A stretch of DNA of 64,000 nucleotides from Taxawa tesnikishii (nom. ined.). Lineage: Eukaryota > Ascomycota > Dothideomycetes > Dothideales. The stretch is from the NCBI GenBank assembly GCA_030247885.1, contig JAPDRO010000015.1, positions 62,001 to 126,000 of the forward strand, given 5' to 3'. The notes beneath the pieces are model-generated. The model was not told the DNA's origin and searched no databases. It worked only from the letters and a program-made list of their open reading frames with translations. Position numbers and translations under genes: made by a program. Positions 4,702 to 63,619 of the stretch are shown piece after piece. Numbering within the stretch: the first letter of the stretch is position 1; every line of letters starts with the position of its first letter.

Positions 4702-7700
4702 CTACACTCCCTGCACCTTCCTATAACTCGGCGGCTTGACCTTCCTCCTGATAACCTTGCCTCCCCAAACCGGGACCAAACTGATCGCACTGATCGCCGC
4801 AACCCTCCACAAAAAGCCCACGCTGACCACAAACCCGAGATCAAAATACCCTCCAAGCAACGGTATACTCCCGAAGTAAATCGCCGCAGTACCGAGAATG
4901 GAAAAAATCATGACAGGATGCCAGGTCGTGACCTCGGCCGCCACCATGATGAGTTCGTTGATGACGAGCACGGTGAAAGATACGCTGACCATGCGATGGA
5001 AACCCGTCTTGTCCCCATCCGCGTCTCCACTACCCGTGTCTCCGCTGGAGAAGCCGGGAACCAAGAGCTGAGAGGCGCCTTGGATGACACAGCCCTGGTA
5101 GATTGAGATGGCGACCCAGACGAAGAAGGTGCGGTAGCTGAGGCTCCGTCCGCTTGTCAACTCCTTGTAAAGCTCCGGGTACAGATTCGCCAGCCCCTCG
5201 TCCACGTCCCGATCCAGCACGAGACTGAACACGGGCGCCATGGTGTACAAGGTCGCATACCCCACGAGCAACCAATCGCGGTACAACGCGATCGGCTCGA
5301 ACGCGCTCGCCACGCTAAAGACGGTCTGGCAGACCGAGATGATGAGGCCACGGTGGATGACAAACTGCGCCAGCTTCGCGGAGCGCTTGTAGCTGTTCCG
5401 TCCATGCCACACCAAGAGCTTCGTCAAGTGCGAGAACTGCGTGATGCTGAAGTCGGCCGCAAGGGAGGCTTGTCGACCTTCTTTGCCCACGATACCCACA
5501 CCCACGTCCGCGGCTTGGATCATGCTGACATCGTTGCCGCCGTCACCAATGCAGGCGACGCGCTTTTGGTGTAGGCACGGATCAGGCGGGCTACGTCGGC
5601 TTTCTGCGTTGGGGAGCAACGGCATGCGACGACGGTGGGGAGGCGCACGGCGATGGAGATGAAGACCTCCCGGTGGTAGGCTAGATAGAGAGCGAGGGAT
5701 TGGCCGTCAATCAGCAGGCAGGCGTTGGGCTGGGAGTGTAGCGGTGACAGGGCATCAAGTGCAGCCTCCTTTCGACGCAAACCAGCGATCGTGTGGATGT
5801 ACTGGCCGCGAGCGACGAGTTTCGAGGACACAGCGACGCAGCGTGCGGTCTCGACTTTGTCACCAGTAAGCATCCAAATCTTTATGCCGGCATTACGAAG
5901 CAACTCGAGTGATGGCTTGATGTGCGCTTGCAGCTTGTCTTCCACACCTGTCACGCCGAGGAGTTCGAGGTCGTGCTCGAGATGCTGCTTCACTACCCGT
6001 GCGAGAGCGTTGTCGCGGTTGCTCAAGCTCAAGCCGGCTTCGGCGAGGGCGTTGGAAAAGCTGGCGTATTTTTCCGAGGACAGCGCCTTGCGGCCAATGA
6101 CAAGAGTGCGCAAGCCTTCGCGAGCCATGTTGGCCGTCTCCTCGTCGAGCCAGTCGTTCGCCGCCACAATCGAAGTCATCACGGTGTCTGCGCCCTTTTG
6201 GAAGAAATAAATCTCGTCCTCCTCGCTCTCAACCGGTTCGACTGAAGTGGTGTCTTTCAGGAATTTGACTATGATACCCATGCGCTTGCTGTCGGATGTA
6301 AAAGGAAAGATGTTGAGGATCTTCACGCGCACGACGATACGATCATCACCAACGAACTGCAACGTGATCGCCTTTCGGTCCCGGTGTAGAAGGCGCAGCC
6401 CGACGTTCTCAGTCCACGCCACGATGGCGATCTCATCTGGGGAGGAGGCTTGATAAGATGTGGCGGTTTCGCCGTTGACGGTCTCTGTGGTGGGAGTGAC
6501 ATTGTGGCAGAGCGCCAAAGCCAATACAAGATCGCGGACTCTAAGCCCAATCTCGCGGCGTGTTCGAGTACCGGATGCAAGAGCGGTGCCGTAATTTGAC
6601 GATGGTGTGAAAAGCTTAGTAGATTGGTCTGAAGATTGCCCTGCAAAGGCTTGACGAATGTATGATGAGACTTCATCCATGGCTTCATTGGCGTAAGATA
6701 CTGTTCCAACGTGGATCTTCTTGAGCTCCATTTCTGGCACGATGTCAGCTGTGAAACACGACTTGAATACTGCAAGGCTTACCGTTCTGCGTCAGAGTAC
6801 CCGTCTTGTCGCTGAGCAGGTACTCTATCCGGCCAAGATCTTCCGGGATCGTGCTTGTTCGTACAACTGTATCCGGGATGCCTTGGTCGCGCTCGATGAA
6901 CCAGGCATAGACGGATTTGCCCATATCAAGATTCACGCGCAAGCTGATGGGTACGATGGTCGAGAACAAGATCAAGAATCTCATGACCGCAACGTACCAT
7001 TTCCGACCATCCTTGGACTCGAAACCTTCGAGCGCGACCAGGATGAAAGACAAGGCCAAAGTCAGAAAACAAAGAATCTTCGTCAATGAGTTGATCTCGT
7101 ACTCCAGAAGACCGGTCTTTGACCGCGACTGAGATGTTGACAAAGCGGCGCGAGTTTGTGGCCCAGTGTAGATGATGACTGCAAGAACAGTAGAACTGGA
7201 CGCAAGCACAGTATTAGCCCAAGCTGTATTGTCAATAGACAATGGTATCGACTTTGCGTCTTGCTCTACATGCGAAGATTGATTGTCGACTTGGTTTGCA
7301 TCACCAGACTTCGAGTTCTTGCTGATGTAGGGGTCGTATACGCGAGACGGCTTAGGAAGTAGCTCTAAAGTTCCCACAAACTCGTTCACATTTTTGTCCG
7401 GTTTCCCAGCAGTGGCTCGAAGTCGAGCAAACTCCTCTTGAGCAAGGTCCTGGGTAAGCGGAGAGGCCAATCTGAGCTTCCAGTCCGTCTCTCCGTCCAG
7501 TTGATCCGTCCTGATGAAAGCCTCTCCGCCTGCACTTGGGTCTTCGGACGTCGTCTGATTAACCAAAGGCGCGCTCTGCGCGGATGAGGGCTGCTCGTAA
7601 CTCTCAATCAGTGCATCTTCCGGTGTATCGCGAGTATCAGATTCTGCTTCGACAGACACCTGCCCAGACAATGCAGAGGCTTCGGTTGAGAAACTCTTGA

Positions 7701-8761
7701 GAATGACCACATCAGCAGGGAATCGTTGGTCTTTGCTCATAACCAAGACATCGCCGACTTTCAAATCGCGCGAGGGTTTCCAGATGTCCTTGACGGACGT
7801 GCTTGGCCGAGTCCCTGTATTCTCCTCCTCGTCCTCGTTGTCCGATAATCTGTCCTGCGGATTGCCGCGCTTCTTCCTGATCTTCCTCCCGCTGGACCCG
7901 CTGCCACCATCATTCCTTCTGGCGCTTTTGCCTGCTGGACCTTCCCCATTCTCCTGAAATTCCAAGACCTGGTATCTTTCCGAGTTGGCTTCCTGATCTC
8001 TCCTTCTCCTTGCAATGTCGTCTGCAGCTTCTTTTCCAAGCGTGATTGCCAGCACAAAGGCCAGCGGAACAATGTAAGTGCTGAGGTATCCAATCCGGAG
8101 GGCGGGTATTATCTGCGACAACGCTACCAGTAAGAAGTACATGTTGAAGAAAAAGAGAACTCGTTATACAAGGTGCGCGGAAGGAATGATACAGGGGTAT
8201 ATTTGGCATTAGAAACAGCATTTGGCGGGAATCGGCTCGCTTGACGCTGGCCGACGGAGATGATGCGGTTAGTGGATGGGTCGTGTTCCTCGGGATCGGG
8301 CTCATTACGATCCTCGGATGGTTGATCGAGACCGGAGCGAGATGACAGGAATCGTGACTTGAATTTGCTCAGTGCTGTCTGCGACTGTTGAGAGAACCTG
8401 CGCAAGCCTGCATTTGGCCGCAACAGGGGGCATCGTCGCCGCCAGTCCCTGAGCTGGCAGCAGACTCCCTTTTCTGCGTGTCTTCGACCTCGTCGTCCCC
8501 TACGAGCGCTGTCAGATCTTCTGCGTCGGCGTCCTGGCGCCTAGCAGCCCGCTTGTAGCCTCTCAAACCACCCAGTCGTAGATTCCTCAAGGGTATGTCA
8601 TAGCTAGTTGTGCGGTTGTGTCTTTGTGGTTTACGGGCAGGTGCAGGCTGGGAGGAAGTCGTGGGATCCAACTCGTCCAGATCGAGGTCGAGATCCGAAT
8701 CATGGTCATCATGGAGGGAAGCGGGAGTGTTGGAGCGGTGGTATTCGTGAGGGCTTGACAT
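4702..8761 (-). CDS. neo1: NEO1/ATP9-type P4-ATPase (phospholipid flippase)
   Basis: P4 ATPase that moves aminophospholipids to the cytosolic leaflet; yeast Neo1 acts at Golgi and endosomes without a Cdc50 partner. Seen here: an acidic N-terminus (DLDLDLDELD), the first membrane hairpin (LSQIIPALRIGYL), QLDGETDWKLR in the actuator region, the phosphorylated Asp in LLSDKTGTLTQN near residue 655, GDGGNDVSMI in the P domain and a C-terminal membrane block. One intron is clear (6734-6782), immediately after TQN. The frame breaks three times by one apparently missing base: a C run at 8426-8430, a T run at 8150-8154 and an A run at 5564-5567 (bases given for the coding strand). Each is followed at once by conserved family sequence in the next frame. 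With three bases restored the gene is 1338 codons. It is divergent from SEC16. The N-terminal break could alternatively hide an intron. Confidence 0.9.
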
Positions 8762-9491
8762 GCCTCATCTGGGCCGCGTGTGGTCGCGCAGTATGGTTCT
8801 TGTTGCCGGAACACTCGGCTCCAACTGGTCCCGTAGAGCTCTTCCTTTGTGAGTCGCAGCAAGCGGTGATGTTGGTAAAAAGACAATGTGTTCCTTGTTC
8901 AGGTGGTAGGCAGGGGAAAGTTGACATGTGAGAGCGGATCGCTTGCTCGGTTCGCGTCAGCTTGTTGTACCAGCCATAAGAGCCTACAGCAAGCGGTCCG
9001 ACGGAACGTGTATATGGGCACATACAAGATCTGGAATGATCCAAGAACGGGATATGCACAGCACTTGAGTGTCTCTGAGCCCTTCACGCAACTTCCGACG
9101 AGTGACTTTCGCGTTCTTTGGACGTATATCACTCTTTCAGTCCAGCAGTCCCGCGTCTTCTGCAAGCGAGCTGAATGACGGTAACGTAGTGTGCAATTAG
9201 GGATGGGATGAGACACGCTCCTTTAGAGACATTCAAATCAACTCCCACCACACTATCACCCTCTATAGGGCTTGCACTTCTTGCAGCGATTCCATGGCGG
9301 CTGCTGCACTGTATTTTTAATATTCGCGTGTGTTCTTGATCCTGCGGCGTTGTTTATCTTCACCTTCAGGTACAAGTTGACTCCGTGAAAGGGGCCTCCC
9401 AGCTCCGGCACGCTTACTACGACCTTGTTCCGTACTAATCATGTCGCGCAGTAATTAATCTCTCTGCACTTTGTACACGCTGCGTCCGAAG
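8762..9491. promoter_or_regulatory. Divergent promoter region NEO1/SEC16
   Basis: This 730 bp stretch lies between two oppositely transcribed start codons and must hold both promoters and 5' leaders. No convincing TATA box or repeated motif was found. Short open frames here look random. Confidence 0.5.
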
Positions 9492-12400
9492 ATGGATTCC
9501 CCGGGAGGACCTGACTTCGGATACGCATGGGGTGGAGGTGGAGGAGGAGCTACTTGGAACCCTGCCTTGAGGCCGGAGGATGACGCCGATCTGGCGAGAA
9601 GGCAGAGCATCGCCAGTCTTGCGGCGGCAGAGGCGACGCCAGCGCATACTCAGGCGACAGAGACGGCAGACGACGATGATTTCTTTGATCGATACCCGGA
9701 TGCGACACCGAAGCGGCCCCAAACGTACTCCCATGACGTCCCGTATACCATCGAACCCGCCCCACCATCTCGCATGCCCAATCTCGAACCGCAACAAGAG
9801 ACAGTGAGATATTTAGTGGATCCGTTTAGTACTCGGACATATGCTGAGGCGCAAGATGTGGAAGAGGACGCCGCTCATGCGGATAAAACACAAGCTGAAG
9901 CGAACACCTTCACAGCAGTTAGCCAAGCTGAGCACTCGGATGCACCCTTGGAGCATCAGAACGTCTTTACACCCACGATCGAGTCTTGGGAGCTGGGTGA
10001 GACAAGCCCATACCACGAGCGGCAGATACACCAACTATCGGATGATGCGGAGGACCATTCTGACCCCGAAGTTGATCCCTCGACCGGAGAACCGTTCACG
10101 CAAGGCGACGCTGTCTCTGAGAACACGAACCAAGCTCAAGCGCCCGAGACCACGAAGGACATAGCTGCATTGGACGGCGCATCACACGATCAATACGAGC
10201 ATCAAGGCGATGACACAGCTGCAGACAAGGCGGTAGATGAAAGCCCATCGGCTCCGCTACTGGAAGATGAACAGCCTGCGCCAACACCAGGCTGGGATAC
10301 CTTAGAATCTACACATGATGGTCTTGGAATTTGGTCAGCACCGGAAGAGCCACCGATAGAGGAGGTGCCAGAGGCGGCAGAGGCTCCGCAAACAGTACCG
10401 GATGCATTTGACTGGGGTAACGATGAGGGAGACGCGGGTTTCGACGAAGCGCTCGGCTTAGGCGGGAAGCCATCGGTGAATGAGCAGACATCTGGGGCCA
10501 CAGAGGGTGCGGAACAAGACGTGACCGGAGGAGGAATCGCCGCGTCGCGGGCAACAGCTATATCTCAGGTTCTCAACGAAGCTACTGCAGACGCTGGAAT
10601 TCCACTTGCAGGGACCAGTGTGACTTCTACTGAGGAAGGATCTAAGGAACAGGATCTTGCTGCTATGTGGCAGGCCGCTCTCGATGACGATGACTTCTTA
10701 GACGACTCAAACTCACTCGATCCCAGTGCTTTCTTCGAGGATGACGGCGAAGGTTTCCTTGACGACACTGAAACTGCACCACAAGCCTTGATGAGCCCAA
10801 CGATGCCGGTCCCAGTACGCGATGCACAAGGCCAAATTCAGGGTTTCACGACTCTTGGTCAGGCGCAAGGGCAGGGAGTCCCAGCATCAGGGGTCAATAG
10901 ATATCAGCCTCCTGCTCCTCTACAACAGCAAAACATGTTGTCGCCTCCACAGAATCAATACACATTGGACAGCCCTCAGTTCTTCAGTGGGTTCCAAGAT
11001 CGTTCCCCGGCAGGCAACACTTTGAGCAGCGCTTTTGGCAATTATGGTCAAGCACCGATTGCTCCTGCTCCTCCAGCACCTCAGCAGCGACCTCCTGGTC
11101 TGCAAGCCTCGCAAAGCTTCGTGGACAAGGCCAAGGGAGGTTACTCGTCGCCGTACGATCTGCCAATGGATATCGTACAACCTCGCCGGAGACCCGCAGC
11201 ACCCGCAGCACCCACGGCTCAACCCACCCCGCCTCCACCACCAAGGTCGAGCAGCATGTACAACCAAGCGCCGGGTCCACCGCCACTCCAACGTGCACCG
11301 ACAAATATGTCGACGGCGACTCTGTCTCCTCCCTCATCAAGTCATTCGAACCAACCGATGCAGACGCGGAGTGTCACGAACCCCCACCAGCTGGACCGAA
11401 GGACAAGTCCGACTTCTTTGCCGATCTCCCAATGGTCTCAAAGCCTCGGTCGCGGCCCTCTGGAGCTTATGCGCCTGGTCCCGGTACAGCAATGCCCACA
11501 CCACCTCCGCAGCAAGGTCCACCATCAAGGCCTCCTTCTCTGCCCACGCCGACCCAAGCGCCTCCAATGGTTGGCGGGCTTGTACAACCGGAGCGATTGC
11601 CATTGCTTCCTGAAATGACGCTTGCAGCACAAGCTCCTCAGATGCAACAGCAACCTCCGGCACCAAGCGCACGCTACTCGCCAGCTGCACCTGCTCTGCC
11701 ATCTGCCGCGAACAGATTCTCTCCAGCGCCGCCCGCTGGGCCGGCATCGACTGCGCGGTACTCTCCTGCTCCTGTGGGCCAGGCTCCTGCATCGACACAG
11801 AACAGATACGGTCCAGCACCAGGCGCACCGTCTATTGCCCGTCAAGTACAACCCTTCGCACCCCGAACGTCGAGCCCTCTTGCTTATCACGAGAAAACGC
11901 AGCCTGAAGGTCCTGCACCACCCATGCGGTCCTCTTCATACCAACCGCAACCTACTCAATTCTCTCCCAGCAAGAGAATGCCATCATTGTCCGCAGAGGT
12001 GACCGCTCCTGTTACTCAGCAGCCAGCGGGTGACGATATATTCGAATCGGAAGTGACACAGGCACGTATGGTCACATCTCCACCACGACTCAACAGTTAC
12101 TCCCCACGCCCTCGGTCACTGCTTCTCCTCAATCCCGCAAGTCTCAGGCGTCGAGATATTCGCCGCTTGAGGCACGGGCGCCGAATGTGGATTTTCCGCC
12201 TCTGGGAAGGCCTCGTACGCAGTCCCCCGGCGCAGTCATGAAGGGGCCGAAGGCTATTACGCAACAGAACGATCGGCCCATTTCTGCAATGGCACCTGTT
12301 GAACAACCAGGCCCAACGAATCCTCAGCAAGAGACTAGCAAGCTGGCTTTGCCTCACCGCAGACAATTCTCAAGTGATCTCAGCTTCGCGATTCCACAAG

Positions 12401-15400
12401 ACGAGAGGGCTGCCGATCCTCTGGAGAGATGGAAGGGTTATCCTATCTTCAAGTTTGGCGCTAACGGCACTCTTATCACTAGCTTCCCGAAGCAGGCGCC
12501 CTTCTACGCTGCCGGTCATGCCATTCCGACGATAAAGTGTACTGCGGGCTCCATCACGATTCACGATACCAAGTTCATGTTCCCGCTGGATGACCGCAAT
12601 GCGAAGTTCCCGGGGCCACTAAATGGGAAGGGCAAAGGCAAGAAGAAGGATGTCCTCGCCTGGTTCACCGGAAAGATTGAGGATCTGGAGAGAGCCAACG
12701 AAGGCGCGTTCCTTGATCTTGGCATGCCTATTGCACTCAAGACGCGGACAGAAGAAAAGGTTGTGCTTTGGAAGGTAGTCAAGATCCTTCTGGAGAACGA
12801 CAATGCCTTGGCTCCGGGCAACAAGGCTGTCGAGGAAGCAGTACGTAAGGTCTTGCTTCCCAACCTTGCCCAGACCCACGTTGCACCACCGTCGGATAAC
12901 TCTGGCTTAGAGGCCGAACCAAAGAACCCTGGGGCTTTGTCGGAGATTCGCAGACACTTACTGGAGGGCGAGCGTGAGCGTGCTGTCTGGTATGCCACAG
13001 AGCAGCGTCTGTGGTCACACGCTCTGCTCATTTCCTCCACTCTCGAATCAAACGTCCACAAACAGGTTGTCCAGGAGTTTGTGCGTGCCCAAGTGAAAGA
13101 CTCTGGCGAACACGCACAGTCTCTGGCTGCCCTGTATGAGATCTTCGCCGGCAACCATGACGAAAGCATCGATGAGCTTGTCCCGCCTTCAGCACGTGCT
13201 GGATTCCAAATGATCAGTAAAGCCGACACTGTCGGCTCGAGTGCGAAGAACCCATTGGAGGGACTCAACCAATGGCGGGAAACTCTCGGCCTCATCATCA
13301 GCAACAGGACCAGGGACGATGTGAAAGCTATTGCTGCACTGGGAAAGCTCTTGGCTGGGTACGGCAGGGTAGAAGCTGCTCACACTTGCTTCCTCTTTTC
13401 ACGAGCCTTCATCCTTCATGAAGGTGCCGACAATCCACAATCAGATCTCGTATTGCTTGGTGCCGACCACAAGAATCACCCCTTGAGCTCGGCCTTGACC
13501 TTGACTCCATCATCTTGACCGAGATATATGAGTACATGGGCTCCCTCAATCCCACTACCGGTGCATCGCCTCTCATCCCTCACTTGCAAGCATACAAGCT
13601 TATGCATGCACACGAGCTTGCTGAGCATGGTCTTCGTACAGAAGCCCTTGCCTACTGCGATGCCATTGCAGCTGCGGTCAAGTCCAGTACGCGAGCTTCT
13701 CCGTACTACCACCCCACGTTCACCAGTTGCGTGGATGACCTCAGCAGGTGCTTGTCACAAGCACCGCAAACCAGCTCCGGTTCTGGCTGGCTTTCCAAAC
13801 CGTCCGTGGAAAAGGTTTCGGGAAGCGTTTGGAACAAATTCAACAAGTTTGTGGCTGGTGATGACAGTGACCGAGTCTCGACTGGTTCTGGTCCAGGCGC
13901 AGAAGGTGCCGATGTTGCTGGACCGTTCGCCAAGGTTAGCGGAGACAGCCCTGCTGTAAGCCGCTCTGCCTCAACTACCGACCTCTACAGCGCTATGACG
14001 ATGAATGGAGGCGTAGCGAACCCAGCATTATCTTCCTCCGTGCCGGGCAGATATGCTCCACCTGCTTTCCCCGCGGCGAAGCCATTCTCAGAACAGGTTA
14101 GCGGTGGTCGGTACGCTCCATCAGCAGGTTCTCCATACGCACACAGCCGCGCTTCCTGGATTCCGCACGCAGCTACGAACCTGATAGGCCGGGTACCGGA
14201 CACTCCGCATCCGGCATGTTGGGCTTGCAGCAACGCGCAATGTCAACTCCATATGGCGCTCCTATCCCACAAGTGCCGCAGACACAGCCACAGGCCATGT
14301 CAAGTCTTGCACCCAGACCAGAAGCGCCAAGAGCGGCCTCGGACTACCGTGTTCAGTACAGTCAACCACCTTCACCGAGAGAAACGAGGCAAGATGGGGT
14401 CGCAGCTGCGTCTCGTTATTCACCGCGACCAAGTCTTGACCAAGCAGCAGCGCCAGCGGCGTATCAACCTGCGTCCAGCCGACCCGGTACATCGAGCGGC
14501 TACGAACCACCTACATCTTCCTACGAACCGCATGTGGATACACCATCATCCGAACCTTCAGCATCCTACGAACCACCGGCGCCCCGCTCGAGCTACGAGC
14601 CCCACAATCCTCGTACGAGCCATCGACTTCGCCCTTCGAATCGCCAACCTCGTCACTTAACGAAGAACTGGCTGAACCGTCGTTGTACGCACCACCTACC
14701 GCTACTTCGAGCTACGAGCCACCAATTTCATCCTTCGATGAACCAGCCGCTCCATCATCATACGAGCCACCCACAACCGCTTCGGGCTATGAGCCGCCAA
14801 CCACATCCTATCAGCCCTACCAGCCAGAGCCGGACGCCGAAGAGGAAGACGAGGCACCCAAGCCTAAGAAGAAGTCCTTTATGGACGACGACGATGAAGA
14901 CGACATCATGGCTCGTGCTGCTGCCCTCAAAGGCTCGAAGCCCGCGACACCGGCATCCACCAGTGACAAAGCAGCCGCCGACCGCGCCGCCGACGAAGCG
15001 TTCCGCAAAGCTGCCGAAGCGGATGCTGAGCGCGATCAACAAGCAGCAGCGCAGAAGAAGGGCTGGTTCGGTGGCTGGTTCAAGAAAGATCCCAACGCTG
15101 CTCCTGGCCCTGTTCGCGCGAAGTTGGGGGAGCAAAGCAGCTTCTACTACGACCCGGACCTCAAGAAATGGGTCAACAAGAAGGGGGTGCGGAGGGAACA
15201 ACGAGTGCTGCGCCGACCCCACCTCCGCCAAAGGGACCACCGAGTAGGAGTGCCAGTGGTGTGAGTGTGGGTGCGATGGGCCCACCCTCCGCGCCACCAT
15301 CAAGAGCTGTGAGTGGTATGGGTGGGCCGCCTTCTCGGCCACCGAGCACTGCGGGCTTTGCTACGCCGATGGGTGGCGGGTCGCCAGCGTTGGGTCCACC

Positions 15401-15644
15401 TTCCGGCCCGCCGTCTAGAGTCGGCACGCCTGGTGCGGACGGCCTCGCGCCGCCCGGTGTCAATGCGGGCATGTTGGGAGGAGGATCGGGTCCGCCAAGC
15501 GCGCCGCCCAGTAGACCAACTACCAGTCTGAGTACGGCGAGCAGTATCGACGACTTGCTTGGCGCGCCACAAGCCAGGAAGGCAGGTGCGGCCAAGAAGG
15601 GGAAGAAGGGAGGCCGGTATGTGGATGTTATGGCGGCGAAGTAA
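9492..15644 (+). CDS. sec16: Sec16, COPII coat / ER exit site scaffold
   Basis: Large peripheral protein that organises ER exit sites and binds Sec23, Sec24, Sec31 and Sec13. The ATG at 9492 begins MDSPGGPDFGYAWGGGGGG. An acidic, repetitive N-terminal half is followed by a Pro/Gln/Ser-rich linker. The central conserved domain with its helical Sec13-binding part lies at about 12400-13500 (for example FGANGTLITSFPK and WSHALLISSTLE). A YEPP-rich repeat follows, and then the C-terminal Sec23-binding region with SFYYDPDLKKWVNKK and repeated GPPS/PPSR motifs. The coding frame steps six times, always in the same direction, as expected from one missing base each: near 11381-11385, 12102-12105, 13479-13482, 14155, 14600-14603 and 15183-15187. 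Restoring six bases gives 6159 nt (2052 residues). No intron is needed. Because Sec16 is normally essential, an assembly error is likelier than a dead gene. Confidence 0.9.
14490..14835 (+). repeat. YEPP-type degenerate peptide repeat within SEC16
   Basis: About ten copies of a short unit with core S-Y-E-P-P, spaced 8-20 residues apart, encoded by recurring TACGAGCC-like DNA. It lies between the central domain and the acidic/Lys segment that precedes the Sec23-binding tail. One of the apparent missing bases (14600-14603) falls inside it. Confidence 0.75.
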
Positions 15645-16313
15645 GCATTCATGCTGTTGGTATGGGTGGGACAGGCGGGACTGGACAAAGAAGAAGAACT
15701 CAATGATGATGGATGGGAAGGGATCGGCGATGTTGCACTTGCATCGGCACACCGGCGTTATGGGTGGCTCGTGATTGCTAGAGGTCGCTTGCGATGTGTC
15801 TCGCACGGCTTGAGAGCCGTGGTGGCGTGGCCTCTGTTTTGCGTTTGTTGTTTCTTCACCCCGCTCACTGTCGGCCTGGTTCGGCCCAGTGGCGGATGGT
15901 TGTACAATTCTTTTTTCGATTAGCCGTTGCGGAGATTTTCGTGTATGAGTTGTAATATGTTGCCTTTGCTATCGATACTTTCATGCGCGGATTCAAAAGA
16001 TCGTGCTTTGTGTGTGCCTGAGTGAGTGATCGATGTGATGTATTCAACGAGACAGGACAGTACCGTCTATAGGTCTAATCTTACAGCAGGTGTGAAAGAA
16101 GTCAATTTGCAACCAGCAGCGCTTTTACTCAAACGCCAAACACAACTGCATCCCTAACATGCAGGTGAGGAACTCCATGGTGTCATCCATCCCGTTTCCC
16201 AACGCCGATCGCAAAGTCATGTATGCATCCCACCAAATCCCAGATCGCTCAACAACATCGACAAATTACCTAGCTCACGCACCCTTTCCCTACGACCGTG
16301 CCATCTTTCTCTT
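15645..16313. other. Convergent intergenic region SEC16 / MFS transporter
   Basis: SEC16 ends at 15644 on the plus strand and the MFS gene ends at 16314 on the minus strand, so this is shared 3' sequence. A pyrimidine-rich tract occurs near the MFS end. No coding or structural feature is supported. Confidence 0.5.
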
Positions 16314-26800: not shown

Positions 26801-28467
26801 ATGTCCTTCACCGAGCTTTCCTCCAACACTACTACTACCACCATCACCACCACCACCACCACCAACAACGACAGGCCACAGTCGCGAACAAGTGCAACAA
26901 ACGCACCTGAAGAGCGTGGCAATGGAACATCGACTCCCGAGCGCCCGCAAGAGAGAAGGGCGACCAGCTACCACCACCCATTTCAGACAAAATGCTCGCC
27001 GTCCGACGATGCGCCCCCTCGTACGCTGCCGCATCTCGTCAATCCCGCTTCCCGGTATCGCGTCGCTACCTCGACAACGGCAATGAGATCTTGCCGAGAT
27101 ACACCTGCACCGTGGAGAAGGAAGGCGTCATGGCTATGTGCGTCGAGGCATTGTCTCCATTCAACTCACTTCCAGTGCAAACGTGGCGCGAGGTCTACGT
27201 CGTTCTCAGCGGCACCATGCTCAACATCCACAAGGTCAAGACAACGAGCGTTGGCAGGTTGAGTGTTGCCAGTGCGGGACGCTTGTTGCGCACATTCACC
27301 TTGCAGCACGCTGAAGTTGGTCTGGCCTCGGACGTCTTTTACAATATCCTGGAGCCGACCACCCGCCTCGCACACCTCATTCCGGCAGTAGCGCGTCGCA
27401 AGGCCTTTCAGAAGGATCCTGACCTCTTCCGCCTCGTGCGCCAATCCGTTCTGCGTCTGCGTCTAGAGGCTGAGCAATTTCTCCTCGCTGAGCAACGTGA
27501 GGAGACTATCTTCAATTGGATCAACCGCATCAGCGCCGGCATCGACATCTCGCTCGCCATCGACGAACGCAGTATCCCGCGTCAATGCACTGTACCGCGG
27601 CGCCGTCGTCGGCAAAACCGACCCAGTTTGAACGGCGACCTCAACGACCGCAGACTCATCGAGGAACAAGAACAAATCCTCCGTGACTTGTACCCAGCTT
27701 TCGCCTCCAACGAGAACGAGTCCGTCGCCACTACGCAACTAAGCAACGAACTCACGCAAACAACGACAAACGAACAACAGCAAGATGAAGAAATCGACAT
27801 CTCCGTTCTAGCCGAGGACAGCGGCGCCACCCTTACACAGACGACCAGCAACGCCCTCAACGACTCCTCTTTGACCACACTCCGCCCGACCGCAAGCCGG
27901 CAAACTACCTCCTCAACCCTCCTCTCCACCGTCAGCAGCGACAGCGATGCGACACTCGACTCAATGACCGCCACGGATTCCCTCATCGACCCAGCGACGG
28001 GCAAGTGGGCCTGGGCGCCATCTCACCCACGCACCCCGGCCCAGCAACTCCGGTACATCAAGCGTTGCATGCCAGTATTGTACGTCGACAGCCCGCGTGC
28101 CAGCAGCGTGCTGATGTGCGCCGGGAAACGCGTGCGCATCAACCCGCTCCTGGAGACGCTGGAGGAATGGACTCTCTCGCCGCCTTCGTATGCCGCGCAC
28201 GACTTCGCCGAGGCTCAGAGCCCGAGCAGGAGGCAGAGCGCGAGCGCGAGCGCGAGCGGTGATGAGATTGCTCCCGCCAGCCCGGCTGTCTCGACGACGG
28301 ACATACAGGCCATGACTTCTGCGGCGCTTGAGAAGACGACGAGCGGGTCTGGAACTGCGAAATCAGTGCCTGCTGTGGCTGGGCCGCAGACGGCGGGACG
28401 TAGGAAGAGAAACGAGCGCCTCACTGCTGTTGAGGCCGAGGCCGCGTTGCCGGTTTTCGGTTTCTGA
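26801..28467 (+). CDS. PH-domain protein
   Basis: About 555 residues. The N-terminus from MSFTELSSN is a Thr-rich low-complexity tract encoded by ACC/ACT repeats, followed by an NPASRY motif and then the conserved YLDNGNEILPRYTCTVEKEG that opens the PH-like domain (about residues 90-240, with WREVYVVLSGTMLNIHK and FNWINRISAGIDIS). A basic PRRRRRQ segment, a Ser/Thr-rich linker, a short conserved block (RYIKRCMPVLYVDSPRAS) and a disordered tail follow. The tail contains a GCGAGC repeat coding Ala-Ser pairs. One base appears to be missing near 27050-27062: the frame of NPASRY continues into the frame of RRYLDNG if one C is added, giving 1668 nt. The family is common in filamentous ascomycetes and, to my knowledge, uncharacterised; lipid binding is inferred only from the fold. 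Confidence 0.82.
28237..28258 (+). repeat. GCGAGC tandem repeat in the PH-protein tail
   Basis: Nearly perfect hexamer repeat coding alternating Ala-Ser. It is length-variable in principle and lies in a disordered part of the protein. Confidence 0.8.
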
Positions 28468-33856: not shown

Positions 33857-34200
33857 TGGAAGTGCAGAGAGATTAGGACAGTCCGGGCGTGTTGATTGTC
33901 TATCTCTTCATAGGATTTGAAAGCGGGGTATTGATCAAGTCATCCTGATATGTCTATTCAACGGTATATCCAGGGGGAACTTTTGGTATTGGCCGGACAT
34001 AGAGAGATGCGCTCCGGCCGCAGGGAGACGTGACGATGATTGGTCTTGGCACTGCTTCCCGCCCACCCCTCCGCTCCTCTCTCCACTCCATTCTACTCTT
34101 CTACTATTCGTCCACAAACGGCTCGTCCGTAGCTTGCTGAGAAAGAACATCGTGTCGATTCTGAAGTTGACGTTGTACAGTTTATGTAGCTGCCTGTAAG
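33857..34200. promoter_or_regulatory. Upstream region of the Hook gene
   Basis: This 344 bp stretch lies between the Hook start (minus) and the F-box fragment (plus). It presumably holds the Hook promoter. No specific site was recognised. Confidence 0.4.
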
Positions 34201-39278: not shown

Positions 39279-41708
<2,430 letters not shown>

Positions 41709-44475
41709 TCACAAAACCACATGTCCCGGACTCGGCGGCGCCACGCCCGTCTCCCAAACCTTCGGGCCGTCACCGACCGTGAACTCGATGGTCCCCCTCA
41801 ACCATCACGTCCGTATGCTCGAACCAGTTCCTGTCCCATTCCCGACCGTTGATCCTGACGCCCTGCACATAGTAACCGCTCTGGCCAAGCCCCTGGGCTC
41901 CTCCCGTGGCTGCAGTAGAATTGGCGCCGCTGGCGGAGTTCGAAGTGATCCGTAACGTAGCATTGCCGTTGATGGTCATGTTGATATCGTCAAACCATGG
42001 CGATTCGAGCAGGTACACGGGTTGGGTCACGATCGGGTAGAGGCCGAGCATCTGCCAGATCAGCCAGCTGTTGAGGGCGCCGGCGTCGGAGTTGCCGGGT
42101 ACGCCGTAAGGCGCGTTGTGGAAGCTATACCGAAGCCCGATTAGTGCTGCTTTCGGGTCGAACGAAGAGAGAGAGGGAGAGGAGATAGAGAAGTAGTGCG
42201 GCAAGAGAGGGCAATGCACATACTACTGGTTCGTCAATGCGCGCGAAGTCTCCACGCTCTTGTACTGTTTGTTGATGTAGTTGTACAGATACGGGGTTGC
42301 GAAATCGGGTTCGTTGCTGTAAAGAGGTCTCAAATCAGCGGGATGATGGTCGGATAACACGGGAGAGAGGGACGTACCCGATGTTCATGATAGTATCGAT
42401 TCCGGCGCCGTTGGCACCGAGATTCTGCTGGCTCGTGTTGGGCTGCATCTAAGCCAGATGTGAGTACCGTGTCAGAGGGTGGATACCGGCGGGCTTACAA
42501 TGTAATCCAGGCGCGTCTCGAAGGAATTGTTACCGCCCATGAACTGGATCAAGGTCTGAGCATCATGTGGGACGACGAAGGAGTACTCTGCCAAGAGTAA
42601 GAAAACGATATCCCTCGTTACAGACGGACACAACGTACCAAAAGGCGTCGCCTCGTACGAAATAGCCTTCCATTCACACTCCCCGCACAGTGCCGGATTG
42701 TAATCTGTGAGGTTGAACGTCCCATCCGCAAGTCTCGGAGCCAAGAAACCGGTGAAGTTCTCGCTGGTGACATTGTTCGACCATATCAATTGCCAACCTG
42801 CAGAGCGGTTCAGATACAGCTGTCGGTCGTCTTCGAGTCCCAAACCAGCCGCTACCTGGCTGAGCGAGAAATCATTGAGGGCGTACTCCACTGTCCTGGA
42901 GATGGCGCGCGTGCTGCGATCGCTGGAGACGTAGCCAAGGGGGATCCAATCATAAAGCGCACCCCGTCCTTCCTTGACGCTAGCAGAGGGGTCGTCGATA
43001 CTGAATGTGTTGTAGGGTACGACTTCGGCATCTCTCTTCATTGCGGCATAGCCGTCTGTCCAATTGATGCCACCGCGTAATCCTTTCACATACGCATCCG
43101 CCAGCACATTGTCTGCGTTACTACCACCTTGAACCAGACCGTTGTAGTTTCCGGAACGGCCGTCTGGCATGAAGCCCTCGTAGCGCCAGATATCAATTAG
43201 GGCTCTGATCATGCCTTCATAGTATGTTGGTTGAATCAGGTGGTACAGACTGACGGTGTTGCGGAAGATGTCCCACAAGGTGTAAAAGTCATCCCAGTAA
43301 GGCTCAGTGGACTCCCATAGCGGATTCTCGCCCGTACGGTCCGAAGGCATAAGGTGCATGAAGTACATCGACGAGTACAGGAGAACGAGGTTAGTCTGGT
43401 TTGCGTTTGGGCCAGTGTCCACGCGGATCTTGCTGAAGACATCTTCGTTCCACTCTTGCCGCGCGGCGGATACTGTGTCATTCAGGTTCCAGGACTGAAT
43501 CTCGCTGTTCTTGAACGAGCAGGCTTTGTCTGCGGAGATGAACGAGATGCCCACTCTGGATTTGATTTGTGCGGCTGTGCTTCCGTTCCAAGTGAACAAT
43601 GCCCCGATACGATCATTCAGGGGCCCCGAGGTCTGGCTGTTTCCGCCAAAGCTGGCTTGTGGGATCGGACCGTCACTGAAGGTGTGATAACGCTGCATGG
43701 GATCTGTGTTGCGGCCACGGAATGTTCGTGCCTGATCCGGCGGGCTGTCGAATTCGCCGCAGAAGTAGACAGTGTAAGGGGCACCTTCATTCCAGCCTCC
43801 GCCGTAAGTCCCGTAGCCTGTGTAGATGGTCCCGTTCGGCTGGAGGTTGATCTCGCCGCCGAGGAAAACTTGGACGCTGTAGCCGCCTGTTTCGTCAGGC
43901 AGATAGTGGGAAATGTCGACCAGAACGTGCTTCTCCCCGCCGGGAAAGAGTATTGCATTATCCCAGAGTGGCGAGCACCGGACAACTCAGCGGTCACGCC
44001 GTTTTCCAGCTGCGTCTTGAAGTAGCCGACCTGCGCGGTATCGTTCCCCACACGAGACTGGAAGTATGTCTGGTTATCCAAAAGATTGACGGGCGCATCC
44101 ACTGTCGTCAGGGGCATCTGAGGGATGATGCCGTATTTGGGAAACCCGCCGGTCCCAGATTCGTGCATCATGGAGATGGCGGTCACCTTGCCGTTAGGCG
44201 TATACCCTCCATTCAAGGTGGCGATGCTCCTGTTGGCTTCGTATGTGTCGATACCCACCTTCACAACGCCGAATGGCACGGCTCCGCCGACGAAGATGTC
44301 ACCACCTACCATGTTAGCGCAGTCCGGGAAAGAGCCAAGAGGAATGTTTACCTCCATATGCCTGTCCTGGTAGTGGCCCCTCAGAGCCAATGATAGGGTT
44401 TACATATTGAGCGTAGTCGACCTGTGCTAAGGTATGCTGCCCGAACGCTACGAAGATCAACGGTAACAGCGCCAT
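41709..44475 (-). CDS. Secreted GH92 alpha-mannosidase
   Basis: Glycoside hydrolase family 92, calcium-dependent alpha-1,2-type mannosidases acting on N-glycans or fungal mannans. Exons 44475-44352, 44305-42639, 42587-42499, 42448-42378, 42316-42224 and 42124-41709; about 820 residues. A signal peptide is visible (ALLPLIFVAFGQ). The N-terminal domain has YVNPIIGSEG and GGAVPFGVVK. The catalytic domain has WESTEPYWDDFYTLWD, YEGFMPDGRSG, GGSNADNVLADAYVKG and, after short introns, NEPDFATPYLYN and PGNSDAGALNSWLIWQMLGLYP. Many N-x-S/T sites fit secretion. One G is apparently missing at 43935-43938. Near the end (41793-41797) the frame is off again: two G missing, or one extra, is needed to reach the family-like end before the stop at 41709. 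Confidence 0.92.
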
Positions 44476-52846: not shown

Positions 52847-55618
52847 TCAGGTGAAGAATGAGTTCTTCGACACCTTCCATTGAGTATCAAAGAACCCCAG
52901 GGCCAAGACGCCATCTGCGCCTTTCCGCAGTATTCCTTTGGACACCACCACGAAATCTGGCTGACCGACGCCCGTGAGCATCGGCGCCAAGCGAGCCGCA
53001 GTGCGGAGGCCTTCCTCATCCGCGCCCCATACCACAAGTTCCAGCGATTCGCTCTTGAGTGGTCTCAGAAAGATGGCCCCTATACTCTGACCTGAGTATT
53101 TCCCTCGCCTCCAGTATCCCTCTTGATTGAAAGAGAGTTGTGTGAGTCAATCGTAATTGGGTGATCGTCAAACAAGCCCGTCGGAAGATCCATGCCGATT
53201 GCAACCTGAACGACATTTCCCGCCGTCTCCGAAAGAGTAATCTCTCTACCGACGATCTCGGTATCCGCGGCAAAGTACTGACACAAATTGCGCGAAACCT
53301 GAAGCGCGATGTGTCTTGAATTGGAACCGGTGAGGATGCGGAGCCTTCCCTGGGTTCGCAATATGGAATCCATAGCACCGAGCTGTCGGCCAGAGCGAGT
53401 AGGTCTGCCCTTCAGATCCCACTCTGATTGCGGTACCTTGACCTAAAAGCGTGAGCAAGTCTTCAAGCTGTCCTTCCGAGCGTTTGCTTACCTGCCAAGA
53501 GCGACTGATAGGTCCACGGCACAGCTCTATCTGCCGTAAGCCATCCACGAACGGAAGCTCCACGCGTTGGCCGTCTACTTCCACGTTGCTTGCCTGACGT
53601 AATCTGTATCCACGCAGCTCGAAACACAGGACGTTACTCGCGGTCACCCGGAGTGCATGCGTCTCATCCACACCAACATTGAGCTTGCCGAGCTGTCCTG
53701 GGGTAACCAACTGGAGGATACGGAAACCGTTCTTGGAACCAGTATCTGCTGGATTAGCAACAACCAGACAGAAGCTCTCTGATGTTTTCTTCATTCGGGA
53801 TTTGTGGTTCAGATGCTCATGGTAAAAGCCTTTTAAGGGCGCAGTCGTCAAGATACCGTCAACCCAGTGCCCTTGCCCGGGAAATTCGACATAGTGGGAT
53901 GAGGCATCGGCTTCGTGGATCATCTGATACATCAGCCGAGAATGGTAAGCAGGAACGTTGTCGTCGTTACTCCCATGTTGTTGCAAGACTGGGATGCCTT
54001 TGACGTTGGAAAGCAGCATCTCATGACGGTAACTGCTGATGGAGCCATCCAAAATTGCACGCACTGCAGGCTGCATCGAATGCCAGAGCTTGAAGGGAAC
54101 ATAATTCTGAATGGAAGAGTATCCAGAGACAGGTGCTGCAGCTATGATATTGTCCGGCTGGTGCGCCATGGCGTACCATGTTCCTTGGCCGCCATTCGAA
54201 TGTCCGCTCACGAGCCATCGCTCGATGTCGACACCAGGTCCAGGCCATCCGGTTGCAGTGATCCATGATGATATTGCGCGGATAGCGGCTTTCACATCCT
54301 CGAATCCCCATGCATGCCAGTCGTCTCCGGACCATGGAGTAACTCCAGTCGGGAACAGCACCCAGGCGCACAGGTCTGGTACCGGGTCCAGAGCATGCGC
54401 CACTAATGGGTCATCCGCTTCGAGTCCAGCACCATGTAGACTCAACAACACCGGCAACGCCTCATGCTCTTCCGGCTGGCATGACATGTTCAAAGGAGGA
54501 GGACGGAGTATGGCATAAGATACGATTGCCCCAGGATGGAGGAATGTGATCTTGTGCGGTTCACGAACAGAGCGCTCTGGAAGAACCTGGGAGACCGTAA
54601 GGGTGGCGATATCGTGCTGCCCAGCGAACACGTATTCCAACGTCAAGCTGACTCGTGAGGGACAAGGAGTCTTGATGCAAGTCAAGTTGAAAGCTATCGG
54701 CCGTGTCTGTCCGGATACGACGAGCCAAGCATCGTCAACCGCCAGCCCGGCACGGTAACCGGCGTCATCTGCGGATATGCCGGTGATCACAACATCGTCC
54801 AAGGCGTGGTTCCTCACAGTCAGGGAGCCGAAAGAACCAGCAAGTACACCTCCAACAATGTCCGGGAGCAATGCTTTCTCTGCCACAAGCTGAAGTCTCG
54901 GCGCGAATGCCTGAGCGCGCAGAGTAATCTGGATATCAGGAGCTCCAATACCACCCATGGCGCGTACGTCTCTGACGAGACGGACATCGATCCGATGCTC
55001 CCCGGTTCCAGATGCAGTACGAGCGGGGCTCTTCTGTAGGAGTAGAAATCGCCGCCGAAGTGATGCTGGCCATCGACCCAGAACTCCAGTACACGGTCTG
55101 TGTAGAGCGCGATACTCTGCGTCTCGGAGCCGTGTATGATGATGGAACCTCGTGCCCAGGCCTGATACTGGAGCACCGCCCAACCATAGATCTTCTGAAG
55201 GAAGTCGAAGTCTACTTCTGGAAAACTGACTATGAAATCCGATTCACTGAAGGTTTCATTGCAGTCACTCGAAATGGGCTTTACCGTGGACCAAGTGACG
55301 GTTCCGTTTAGCGCCAATGAACTTCGGAACGTGGCATTGCTGTCAGGCTTCAGTGAAGGAAAACCGCCATAGTACTCCAAGGGATCAGCTCCCCACGTCG
55401 CCTCTATCGCAGCATCAGCGTTCTGAAGCTATCTACACAGCAGTCTCGGGGCGGCGGTGTTTCATGCCTCTGGTGCCGGTCTGGAATGGTCCTAGAACGT
55501 GCCAATCTGTAGAGAAATTGATGGGGCATGCACTACAATTATGGGGAGGAGATGAAGTAGAAGGGCTCAGATAGCTTTGGAACGATGACAGTGCAGTGAA
55601 GATGCCAGTAACTTTCAT
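52847..55618 (-). CDS. Large alpha/beta-hydrolase (S9-like esterase/peptidase)
   Basis: Two exons, 55618-53492 and 53442-52847 (GTAAGC...TTTTAG), about 908 residues. The start at 55618 opens DWHVLGPFQTGTR, then WGADPLEYYGGF and a beta-rich N-terminal domain (WAVLQYQAWARG, DGQHHFGGDFYSY). The hydrolase core has LLSLHGAGLEADDP, WHAWGFEDVKAAI, a Ser nucleophile in GHSNGGQGTWY near residue 474, Asp in QQHGSNDDNVP near 551 and His in PGQGHWVDG near 583. This is a complete triad of the prolyl-oligopeptidase/esterase type. A C-terminal domain follows (PTGLFDDHPI, VVSKGILRKG). Four bases seem missing: two in the first ~60 codons after GTR (exact places unclear), one G at 55000-55003 and one at 53091. 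The N-terminus is only weakly hydrophobic, so secretion is uncertain, and the substrate is unknown. Confidence 0.8.
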
Positions 55619-56075: not shown

Positions 56076-57790
56076 ATGACAACCACACATACCGGCATCG
56101 AGCGACGGTCATCATCGTCCGCGGATCCAAGGATCTTCAAATTCCCCGAGTTCTCCCAAAACGGCCTCTCAGTATACGACGAAGATGCGATAGACAGCGG
56201 ATCAAGATCGCCTAGCCCGCGACCACTACCACTTCAGAACAATCTGCATTCGGCTGAGCGCTGGCAAGCGCGCAGAAACTCGCGCGTAAATGGTGGACTT
56301 TGGGGAACTGGAGGGATGGGAGGAACAAGACATGGCAGACAAAAAGCTTGAGCGAGGCGATAAGAACGGTGAGGACAAGAAAGGGAAGCGTCAGTGAAAA
56401 TGCGCACGAGATTGCAGAGGCGCTGAAAGCTCCCGTGTCTGGGAAGCTCATTGTACGTAGGCAACGCTATCATAATCGTTACAGTGACGGGGCTGATATT
56501 CCACCAAGCTCCTCTGTGGTGTCTGGTACGGCACTTCCATCCTCTCGAACACGTCTTCCAAAGCCATCTTGACCGCGCTTCCTATGCCCGTTACCCTGAC
56601 CCTTGTACAATTCCTCTTCGTCTCCGGGCTGTGCATGTTCTTCTCCTGGCTGGCCCGGATATACCCACCCCTCCGCAATGCTGTACCCGCTCTGCGATAT
56701 GGGATCCGACGACCGAGCAGGGAACTCGTAATGACCACGCTTCCCCTCACGGCCTTCCAAATCGGCGGTCACATCCTCAGCTCCGACGCCATGGCGCGCA
56801 TTCCCGTCTCACTGGTCCACACCATCAAGGGCCTGTCTCCCCTCTTCACCGTCCTTGCATACCGCTTCTTTCTCAACGTCAAATATTCCTCCGCGACGTA
56901 TCTGTCTCTGGTGCCCCTCACGCTCGGCGTCATCATGGCCTGCTCCACCAGCTTCAGCTCAAACTTCCTCGGCCTCCTCTACGCTTTCGGCTCCGCCCTG
57001 CTCTTCGTCACCCAGAACATCGTATCCAAGAAACTCTTCAATGAGGCAGCCCGTGCCGAAGCGGACGGCATCCCACGCAAGAACGCCAAACCGGATAAGC
57101 TCAACCTGCTCTGCTACTCCTCCGGTCTAGCGTTTGTGTTTACAGTGCCCATCTGGTTCTGGTCCGAAGGCTTTGGAATTATCGGCGACTTCCTCAACGA
57201 CGCCTCCGTCGAGCTCTCCGAGCGCCCGGGCAGCTTAGACCACGGTCGTCTTGCCTTGGAGTTCATCTTCAACGGCTCCTTCCACTTCGGCCAAAACCTC
57301 GTCGCCTTCGTTCTCCTGGGCCTCGTGAGTCCCGTCACGTACAGCGTCGCCAGTCTCATCAAACGTGTCTTTGTCATCGTGTTTGCGATCATCTGGTTCG
57401 GAAATCCGATGACCAAGATCAAGGTTTCGGCATCGCGCTCACGTTTCTGGGTCTGTACTTGTACGATCGCACGAGCGATGCGGCGAGAGCGGACAAGAGG
57501 GCGAGGCTTGGCAAGGAGGGGCAGACGTTGCTGCCGTTGGTCAGCGGGGACGCGAAGAGGCATGATGCTGGGCCGGGGATGTATGTGCAGAGTCCGGCGA
57601 GTTATGCGCCGCCCCTGAGTGGTACGAATGGCGCGCCGAGCGGGCCCGGCGGGTTTGGGGGATTACTGGGAGGCCGAGGGCGCCGAGTGGCGCGAGTCCG
57701 GGCAATACGGGTATGTGGTTGCCGCCGGGGACGAAGGCTGAGGAGACGTGGAACAATAAGGATTTGATGAGGGAGAAGAATGTAGGATAG
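56076..57790 (+). CDS. sly41: SLY41-like nucleotide-sugar/triose-phosphate transporter family protein
   Basis: Member of the TPT/DMT superfamily; yeast Sly41 is a multicopy suppressor of ER-to-Golgi defects. Exons 56076-56452 and 56509-57790. The first ~125 residues are soluble and Ser-rich, with SEAIRTVRTRKGSVSENAHEIAEAL. About nine to ten membrane segments follow, with WYGTSILSNTSSKAIL, TAFQIGGHILSSDAMARIPVS, HTIKGLSPLFTVLAYR, GSALLFVTQNIVSKK, LVSPVTYSVASLIKRVFVI and IWFGNPMT, all typical of the TPT domain. The soluble tail is Gly/Pro-rich. Three bases seem missing: a G at 56302-56305, a C at 57420 and a G at 57678-57680. Adding them gives 553 residues ending at the TAG at 57788. A naive reading would end too early in each case. 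Confidence 0.9.
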
Positions 57791-61017: not shown

Positions 61018-62242
61018 TCATGCATTCCACCTGAACACTGCTTTGATAGCCTTTCCGTCTTTTAGATCAGAGAATGCACGCTCATGGTCTCTGATGTCAT
61101 AATAGGTGATAAGCTTTTCGAGTGGAAATTTGCCATCCGCGTGCTGCGCAACAATCCATGGTATCATCTATATTGAGGATCAGTATCACGCAGTGCTTGG
61201 CGATTGCCGTGAAGATTTTTACCTCGCGTGATATACTGTCTCCTTGGTGGGTGCCCACGTACTGACGACCGAAGAGCAGATGGCTAGCGATCTCGATGCC
61301 AGCACGCGGCCCCTTTCCGGGTGAGCCCACCGTACATCCTCGTCCTCGTATCCCGAGTGAGTCGACCATGTTCTGCACGACGCTAGGGAACCCGGCACAA
61401 TCCACGGCATATTTGACGCCGTTAGGCGGACAGAGCTCTTTGATCTCTTTGACAGTGGTTTCCGAGCTGAGGATCGTGTGCGTGGCGCCTAGTTCCTTCG
61501 CTAATTCGAGACGATCAAGACTGATATCCACAGCGATAATCTTCCCGCCTCGCGGATCTTAGCAGCCATAACCGCACTGAGTCCGACAGAGCCAACTCCG
61601 AAAACTGCAAGGTCACTGCCAGGCTTGACGTCCAGGACATTCAGAACAGCTCCCACGCCTGTTTGTATACCGCATCCAAGCGGAGCGAATAACTCCAGAG
61701 GCGTATCCTGGGGAACCTTGTTCAGGCTATTACGATGTACAATGGCGAGGCGAGAGAAGCTGCTTTGGCCGAAAAAGTGTCCATTGAGCGGACTACCGTC
61801 CTCGAGGAACAAAGTATGAGAACCATCAGCACGACGTCCGCCGAAAAGAAGTGAACCGATGTGGTCGCAGTACGCTGGATCTTCCGATGTGCACTGGGCA
61901 CAGTTTCCACAGAAGGGATAGCTGAGAATAACCTTGTCGCCTGGTCGTACGCCCTGCACTTCTGAGCCAGCCTCAATAACAACGCCAGCACCTGTGGGAG
62001 TGAGGTTGGCATGGACGAAGCGGACAATACTCTGTTGCTGGGGGCTTACCTTCGTGACCAAAGACTGCTGGAGCCGATGCTGGCATAGCTCCTGAGGCGC
62101 TCTTTAGGTCAGTATGGCAAACACCCGTAGCATGTATCTCCACCAATGCTTCATCTGGACGCAGATCGTCAAGCGTGATTGTCTCGAGTTTGAAGGGCGC
62201 ATTGAACTCGCGTACGACGAGCGCGGTGGTCGTCTTGGTCAT
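61018..62242 (-). CDS. Zinc-dependent alcohol dehydrogenase (aryl/benzyl type)
   Basis: Medium-chain NAD(P)-dependent alcohol dehydrogenase. Exons 62242-62050, 61991-61223 and 61167-61018; 370 residues. Catalytic zinc ligands are visible in GVCHTDL and FGHEG, and the structural zinc loop is CGNCAQCTSEDPAYC. The cofactor-binding turn reads AVFGVGSVGLSAVMAAK, followed by VDISLDRLELAKELGATH. The C-terminus has KLITYYDIRDHERAFSDL and ends KAVFRWNA. One G is missing at 61544-61546, between REAG and KIIAVD. The long loop after the structural zinc (SLLFGGRRADGSH) recalls aryl- or benzyl-alcohol dehydrogenases. Divergent from the deaminase. Confidence 0.92.
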
Positions 62243-62945
62243 GATGCTTGGCTGGAGTTTAGAGGTATCCTAGCTCTCAAAACGGTAGGGCATCAAAAGC
62301 ATGATGTGCAGTACATGTATGGGACGGCAGTGGGGGCAGATGATGTGGGGATCAACAGCGGAGACCGGCAGTGGAGAAGTGGCTCTTTCGTCGTCATGCA
62401 CTTCGGTTCTTCCACTTCAGCCCGTCCTTAAACAAAGCCCGAGTCCCACGCCTAGGCCCAAATACTCTCCTCAACGTGCTCGAATTGGATGTAGTAGGTA
62501 CGCAGCCGACGATACGGCGAACTGCTTTGTTCGCGATACCAAGCCGATGGGCTTCCGGGGACTAACCGCGGGAGATGTCGTTGTTTGACACTTTACTCAC
62601 GGCTTTTGTTTTCTAACCTGCTGTAACTATAATTCCATCTCTCATTCTCAGCATAGACTACGGAGCAAGAGGGTGGTTGTTCGACAGCGAGCCTCTTCCT
62701 GAAAGTTTTCACTGCTCATCAATGCACGATGACGACAACAGTCATCATTGCTTTACTACTTATTCAAACTACATATGTTATATATCGTAGCTACTGTTCA
62801 CCTTCAAAGCGACAAGAGAGCAACTACCCTTTCCTTGAACGCTTCCTCTGTCCGCTCTTCCTGGTCTTTCCGTCCCATTGCTCTCCCACAGCGAAACCGA
62901 AGCTACAGCTAACAACATGAATCTCAATTCCCCGTGATCCTCTTA
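62243..62945. promoter_or_regulatory. Divergent promoter ADH / deaminase
   Basis: 703 bp between opposite starts; no discrete motif recognised. A T/C-rich stretch precedes 62946. Confidence 0.4.
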
Positions 62946-63619
62946 ATGCTCTCTCTCCTTTCCATCCCTTCTATCGCCACCCATTCTCCCCCTCAGTTGA
63001 CTCTGTACCATTTCCGACCCGCCTCCACTGGATGCGCGTAGCCTCTTCCGCCAACCTAGCACTCTCCCCTGCCCATTTGCCCCCTTCGGCGCCGCAATCG
63101 TGAACCACACGCCGCCTTCCTCTGCCGGGGATCTCATCTGCACCGGCCTGAACCACAACGGCCTTACCGGCAACCCTTCTCTCCACGGCGAAATGGCCGC
63201 GCTGGCGAACTGCAGCGAGATCCTAACCCCCTCGCCATGCAGGCGGCTTCGGGTTAAGCGCGGCAGAGGCCCTAGAGAGCTACAAGCACTTTACGCTCTA
63301 CACGACTGGCGAACCTTGTCCCATGTGCGCATCCGCGATCCGGTGGGCCGGGTTTAAGGAAATGGTCTTCGGCACGTCGATCACCACGCTCGTCGACTTT
63401 GGGTGGAGCCAGATCGGGATCGAGAGCAAGGAGGTTTTTGAGCGGAGTGAGGGACTGGGGACGGAGACCAGATGGATAGGGAGTGTGGGCGCGAATGAGA
63501 CGGATGGCTTGTTTGGGTGGCAATTCAGAGATGGCGGCAGATGTCCAACGGGGTGCGAGAGAAGGAAAGGAGAGGGATGTGCGCCGGCTGAAGAAGTGCG
63601 AGGGAGGGAGGAGCTGTGA
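62946..63619 (+). CDS. Zinc-dependent CMP/dCMP-type deaminase family protein
   Basis: Cytidine/deoxycytidylate-type deaminase fold, with zinc ligands in LHGEMAAL (His and the proton-shuttling Glu) and EPCPMCASA (two Cys). The start at 62946 gives a short hydrophobic N-terminus (LSLLSIPSIA), then HWMRVASSANLAL, CPFAPFGAAIVNHT and GLNHNGLTGNPSLHGEM. After the zinc site come AIRWAGFKEMVFGTSI and WIGSVGANETDGLFGWQF, and a Cys-containing end. The order matches fungal deaminase-like proteins related to tRNA-adenosine and guanine deaminases; substrate unknown. Four bases appear to be missing, in C runs at 62988-62992, 63066-63069 and 63227-63231 and in a G pair at 63245. With them the product is 225 residues. 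The first break could instead be an intron end (CCCTCAG). Confidence 0.8.

What the first reader, a model, noticed from the sequence alone, without database searches (positions are those of the whole stretch)
4702..63619. About 31 apparent single-base losses break 13 of the window's protein genes
In NEO1, SEC16, GGC1, NNF1, the PH protein, the unknown anchored protein, the F-box gene, GH92, the hydrolase, SLY41-like, P450, ADH and the deaminase, conserved protein sequence stops and resumes one frame over at a short run, mostly C or G. The direction is that of a lost base at every site I could place, apart from a length-ambiguous spot at the GH92 end. Adding one base per site makes total coding lengths divisible by three. 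Unrelated essential genes are hit alike while others are clean, so under-called homopolymers in the assembly are the simplest cause. Genome-wide programmed frameshifting is a remote alternative, as no shared slippery signal is seen.
Basis: partly seen in the sequence, partly recalled or inferred. Interest (0 to 1): 0.8.

Follow-up and report, generated by a model that had tools for sequence, protein, structure and literature searches.

The report
Sequencing errors splitting fungal genes
Several genes in this fungal DNA stretch look broken by one-base frame slips, but such slips turn up across the sampled assembly and look like long-read sequencing errors, so this is very probably a draft-quality artefact and not biology.

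Summary
At five junctions similarity shows a frame change, one nucleotide short, with no room for an intron: NEO1, SEC16, GH92, ADH, SLY41-like (the last read by eye). NEO1 and ADH resume at the next residue of the homologue. A frame-switch model losses and 5 gains in the window, 33 and 11 over 264 kb; model-drawn error-free DNA gave 1 and 0. In E. coli it made 31 calls: 30 at gene boundaries, one at prfB's known frameshift. Breaks occur in 15 of 20 stretches elsewhere; the window is not special (p 0.24). G/C runs of six or more are depleted (10 seen, 36 expected), runs of four in excess. Corrections: gains exist, 31 sites were not reproduced, introns suffice for P450 (part examined) and probably GGC1. 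Against: 20 of 33 losses have no run of four within 12 nt. In-frame slippery heptamers are not preferred over other phases. No reads were available, so the cause is inferred. Interest low.

The parts
4702..8762 (-). NEO1-type P4-ATPase gene, frame broken; similarity-pinned break near 5566-5570, a second, model-only break near 8429
9492..15645 (+). SEC16 gene; similarity-pinned break in 13489-13514; model-only breaks near 11182, 12046, 15214 (loss) and 14488 (gain)
26801..28468 (+). gene without Pfam match; model-only break (loss) near 27066
31408..33857 (-). HOOK_N-domain gene; model-only break in the gain (or two-base-loss) direction near 33394
37398..37900 (+). decoded gene without Pfam match; model-only gain call near 37848
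41709..44313 (-). GH92 gene; similarity-supported break (loss) near 43923-43976; model-only gain call near 41791
52847..54959 (-). hydrolase (Peptidase_S9 match); model-only break (loss) near 53088
56584..57742 (+). SLY41-like transporter (TPT family); break (loss) near 57425, model-only gain call near 57643
61097..62243 (-). zinc-type alcohol dehydrogenase; similarity-pinned break near 61543-61545, missed by the model

Best explanation
The breaks are residual base-level errors of a long-read draft assembly that was not corrected with accurate reads. When the consensus was made, a base was lost at many places, often in short runs of one base; fewer places gained a base or lost two. Each error shifts the reading frame of an otherwise normal gene, and the living fungus is expected to carry intact genes. 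Shown here: the frame breaks, the lean to loss, the spread over the sampled genome, the shortage of long G/C runs. Inferred: that the cause is base calling and consensus making, that the assembly is from long reads (29.4 Mb in 34 contigs), and which platform.
For: Five similarity-pinned junctions, each one nucleotide short. Model scan 33 losses and 11 gains in 134 kb coding, p 0.0013, against 1 and 0 in 194 kb coding of synthetic DNA. E. coli control: 31 calls, 30 within about 32 nt of an annotated gene boundary (by eye) and one in prfB near its known frameshift. Breaks in 15 of 20 other stretches on nine other contigs; rate in the window not different, p 0.24. Runs of four or more near 13 of 33 losses, random 14.0%. 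G/C runs of six or more 10 seen, 35.8 expected; runs of four 940 seen, 826 expected. Precedent: PMC7500977 (passages).
Against: 20 of 33 model-called losses have no run of four or more within 12 nt, although the model places breaks only roughly. 11 of 44 model calls are gains. Genome-wide family junctions are 10 losses of 12 only under a cut-off I chose after seeing the table; with the script's preset gap limit it is 13 losses, 7 gains, 2 same frame of 22. Three G/C runs of 9 to 11 bases are present, where about none is expected. Diverged repeat copies on contig C2 differ by single-base gaps few of which lie at runs. In PMC7500977 the errors were more often over-long runs. No reads, no second isolate, no fungal control genome.
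Confidence: 0.95

Rival explanations
1. Real mutations: the strain carries single-base losses in many genes, for example after loss of mismatch repair.
For: Single-base changes at runs are the usual product of lost mismatch repair (recalled); the sequence alone cannot exclude it.
Against: NEO1 and SEC16 are essential in yeast (recalled). In NEO1 and ADH the protein stays highly similar to the homologue on both sides of the break. 23 of 76 decoded genes are hit, a load that a living strain would hardly bear.
Confidence: 0.03
2. Genome-wide recoding: the genes are truly one base short and ribosomes or RNA polymerase slip back by one.
For: The lean to minus-one is the direction such slippage would need. 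XXXYYYZ heptamers are enriched near losses: 8 of 33, random 6.0%.
Against: The heptamers are not preferentially in the frame that ribosomal slippage needs: in frame 3 of 33 (random 2.7%), other phases 5 of 33 (random 3.4%). 25 of 33 losses have no such heptamer within 20 nt. 11 of 44 calls go the other way. It would not explain the missing long G/C runs.
Confidence: 0.005
3. Introns, gene ends or adjacent genes misread as frame breaks.
For: It does explain P450 (part examined) and probably GGC1. The detector chains neighbouring E. coli genes by false frame changes and inserts 50 false introns there.
Against: At the five pinned junctions there is no space for an intron and the homologue continues at once. 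The synthetic control with introns gave one false call.
Confidence: 0.015

Closest known systems
Indel errors in nanopore-only fungal assemblies (Drechmeria coniospora, PMC7500977; passages seen)
   Same: Conserved genes split by small indels, mostly in homopolymers, over a whole fungal genome; corrected there with short reads.
   Different: There polishing made more insertions than deletions; here losses prevail. The platform of the present assembly is not known.
Systematic nanopore errors after polishing (Homopolish paper, PMC8011154; passages seen)
   Same: Indels at homopolymers that shift frames; one of its isolates keeps mostly deletions after Racon and Medaka (7891 deletions, 1114 insertions).
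   Different: Another of its genomes keeps more insertions (704) than deletions (324) after the same steps, so the direction is not fixed.
Euplotes programmed frameshifting (PMC10235951, PMC4759687, PMC5011710; starts of abstracts in the listing)
   Same: Many unrelated genes need a frame change.
   Different: Euplotes shifts by +1; here the net change is mostly minus one and no shared in-frame signal was found.

Membership tests
Long-read consensus indel artefact | Genome-wide, regardless of gene function | tested here: met
   15 of 20 stretches on nine other contigs; family junctions on ten contigs
Long-read consensus indel artefact | One direction of one-base change prevails | tested here: met
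   33 losses, 11 gains; weaker under the preset cut-off (13 to 7)
Long-read consensus indel artefact | Errors sit at runs of one base | tested here: inconclusive
   13 of 33 near runs of four or more, random 14.0%: enriched, but a minority
Long-read consensus indel artefact | Long runs under-represented | tested here: met
   G/C runs of six or more 10 against 35.8 expected; E. coli 11 against 15.0; three G/C runs of 9-11 are exceptions
Long-read consensus indel artefact | Accurate reads disagree with the assembly | not testable with these tools
   no reads held
Programmed minus-one ribosomal frameshifting | Slippery heptamer in the zero frame | tested here: not met
   3 of 33 in frame (random 2.7%), 5 of 33 in other phases (random 3.4%)
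Programmed minus-one ribosomal frameshifting | Stimulatory RNA structure downstream | not tested
   not examined
Euplotes-type +1 frameshifting | Net change of +1 | tested here: not met
   33 of 44 model calls and the five pinned junctions are minus one

The most novel reading that the evidence does not exclude
The fungus truly lacks a base in a large share of its genes, essential ones included, and reads through by minus-one slippage of the ribosome or RNA polymerase at short runs, without a fixed signal.
Probability: 0.005. Interest if true: 0.95.

Novelty: not a real feature. Interest (0 to 1): 0.06.

Why it matters
As biology it does not. As a warning it does: 23 of 76 decoded genes in the 264 kb examined carry at least one called break, so protein predictions and pseudogene claims from this assembly are unreliable until accurate reads are used. 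If the breaks were real, it would be an unknown kind of decoding in a fungus.

Tried and rejected
Repeat copies, to see whether they differ mainly at runs: those on contig C2 are either identical over 4 kb (one pair) or about 7-13% diverged over the long aligned parts, with single-base gaps few of which lie at runs; no support for the artefact from there. The 5.8S RNA search, meant to place the organism, found nothing. PDB gave no match for the GH92 N-domain at the limit used and one too distant to pin the break for the next piece. The sugar-transporter search scored 9 of 323 candidates and was left out; the AMP-binding search (14 of 75 scored) gave five same-frame neighbours and no frame break. 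P450 and kinase searches scored 92 of 127 and 128 of 189 candidates. The first run-length comparison was redone with an E. coli control. Limits of the detector: the synthetic control is drawn from the model itself and so is flattering; the E. coli run used one training pass, the fungal one several; E. coli calls sit at operon gene boundaries because chaining two genes costs less than ending and starting one, and 50 false introns were inserted there (not checked one by one). Some of the 44 fungal calls may be of that kind.

Full report
What the window is. It is part of a 29.4 Mb genome in 34 contigs. The genes (NEO1, SEC16, SEY1, GAPDH, GH92) and the short decoded introns (121, median 62 nt) suggest a filamentous ascomycete; that is inference, and the species was not determined.

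Are the breaks in the sequence? Yes. In NEO1 the frame 5520-6791 matches yeast Neo1 (7rd6) up to residue 873 and the frame 4702-5706 starts at residue 874, the last codon of one and the first of the other sharing one nucleotide. In the alcohol dehydrogenase the same holds at residues 227/228 of 5tnx. In SEC16 the two parts of the Sec23-binding domain lie 26 nt apart where nine profile positions are missing. In GH92 the N-domain match overlaps between two frames, offset by one nucleotide (my calculation). In the SLY41-like transporter the end of the domain continues in another frame (and 51 by eye). No intron fits at these five places, and each is one nucleotide short.

How many, and in which direction? 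I trained a codon-level hidden Markov model with introns and symmetric one-base frame changes on the window and 20 stretches of 10 kb from nine other contigs. At penalty 9 it losses and 5 gains in the window and 33 and 11 in all (p 0.0013); penalties from 7 to 14 give 48/17 down to 8/4. On 27 synthetic stretches drawn from the model, with introns and without errors, it loss and no gain. Run on 150 kb of E. coli K-12 after training there, it makes 31 calls, 30 of them within about 32 nt of an annotated gene boundary (by eye) and one in prfB, near the known programmed frameshift (the prfB site itself is recalled, the record shows a gene joined from two pieces). The detector is not sensitive (it missed ADH) and its introns are not reliable. 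My lower bound for the window is 9 genes: 8 of 20 decoded plus ADH. P450 (part examined) and probably GGC1 are explained by introns; NNF1 is ambiguous.

Is the window special? No. It has 15 calls per 35.4 kb of decoded coding sequence, the other stretches 29 per 99.0 kb (p 0.24), and 15 of 20 stretches carry at least one. Neighbouring P450, kinase and AMP-binding matches (266 matches) were also compared. Where the DNA gap and the profile gap agree within 20 nt, a cut-off I set after seeing the table, there are 12 junctions on ten contigs, 10 of them in the loss direction (p 0.039). With the script's preset limit (gap of 38 nt or less) there are 22: 13 loss, 7 gain, 2 same frame; most of the extra ones have an excess of 46 to 72 nt and so look like introns with over-extended ends. 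The family evidence thus shows the spread well and the direction only weakly.

What causes it? Runs of four or more lie within 12 nt of 13 of 33 losses and 4 of 11 gains (random 14.0%; p 0.0003 for losses). The other 20 losses have none, so runs are not the whole story, or the placement is too rough. G/C runs of six or more are at 28% of a third-order Markov expectation, runs of four at 114%; E. coli K-12 has 73% (11 against 15.0, p 0.18) and 101%. A/T runs of six or more are at 71%, in E. coli 93%. Three G/C runs of 9 to 11 are exceptions. Slippery heptamers are enriched near losses but not specially in the frame that ribosomal slippage needs. Nanopore-only assemblies of Drechmeria coniospora show frame-shifted conserved genes that short reads corrected (PMC7500977, passages), though with more insertions than deletions; the Homopolish paper shows polished assemblies with either sign in excess (PMC8011154, passages). 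I conclude on a consensus artefact; the platform cannot be told.

Novelty. None. Genome-wide minus-one decoding is not strictly excluded and gets a probability of about 0.005.

Noticed in passing
L029-L033 (contig C2 of the same genome, 1.16 Mb): Contig C2 holds several kinase-like repeat copies; a search with one 3.2 kb copy found all 10 matches on C2 and none on other contigs, and another 4 kb stretch occurs twice without a difference. It could be an accessory chromosome or a foreign contig.
   Followed up: partly
whole genome (no locus): A search for 5.8S rRNA found no match in the assembly; the rDNA may be missing from it.
   Followed up: no
G000 contig C10, about 190-200 kb: Three AMP-binding domains within 9 kb, one in an open frame of 2757 aa: perhaps a peptide synthetase cluster, and an example of a very long unbroken frame.
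   Followed up: no
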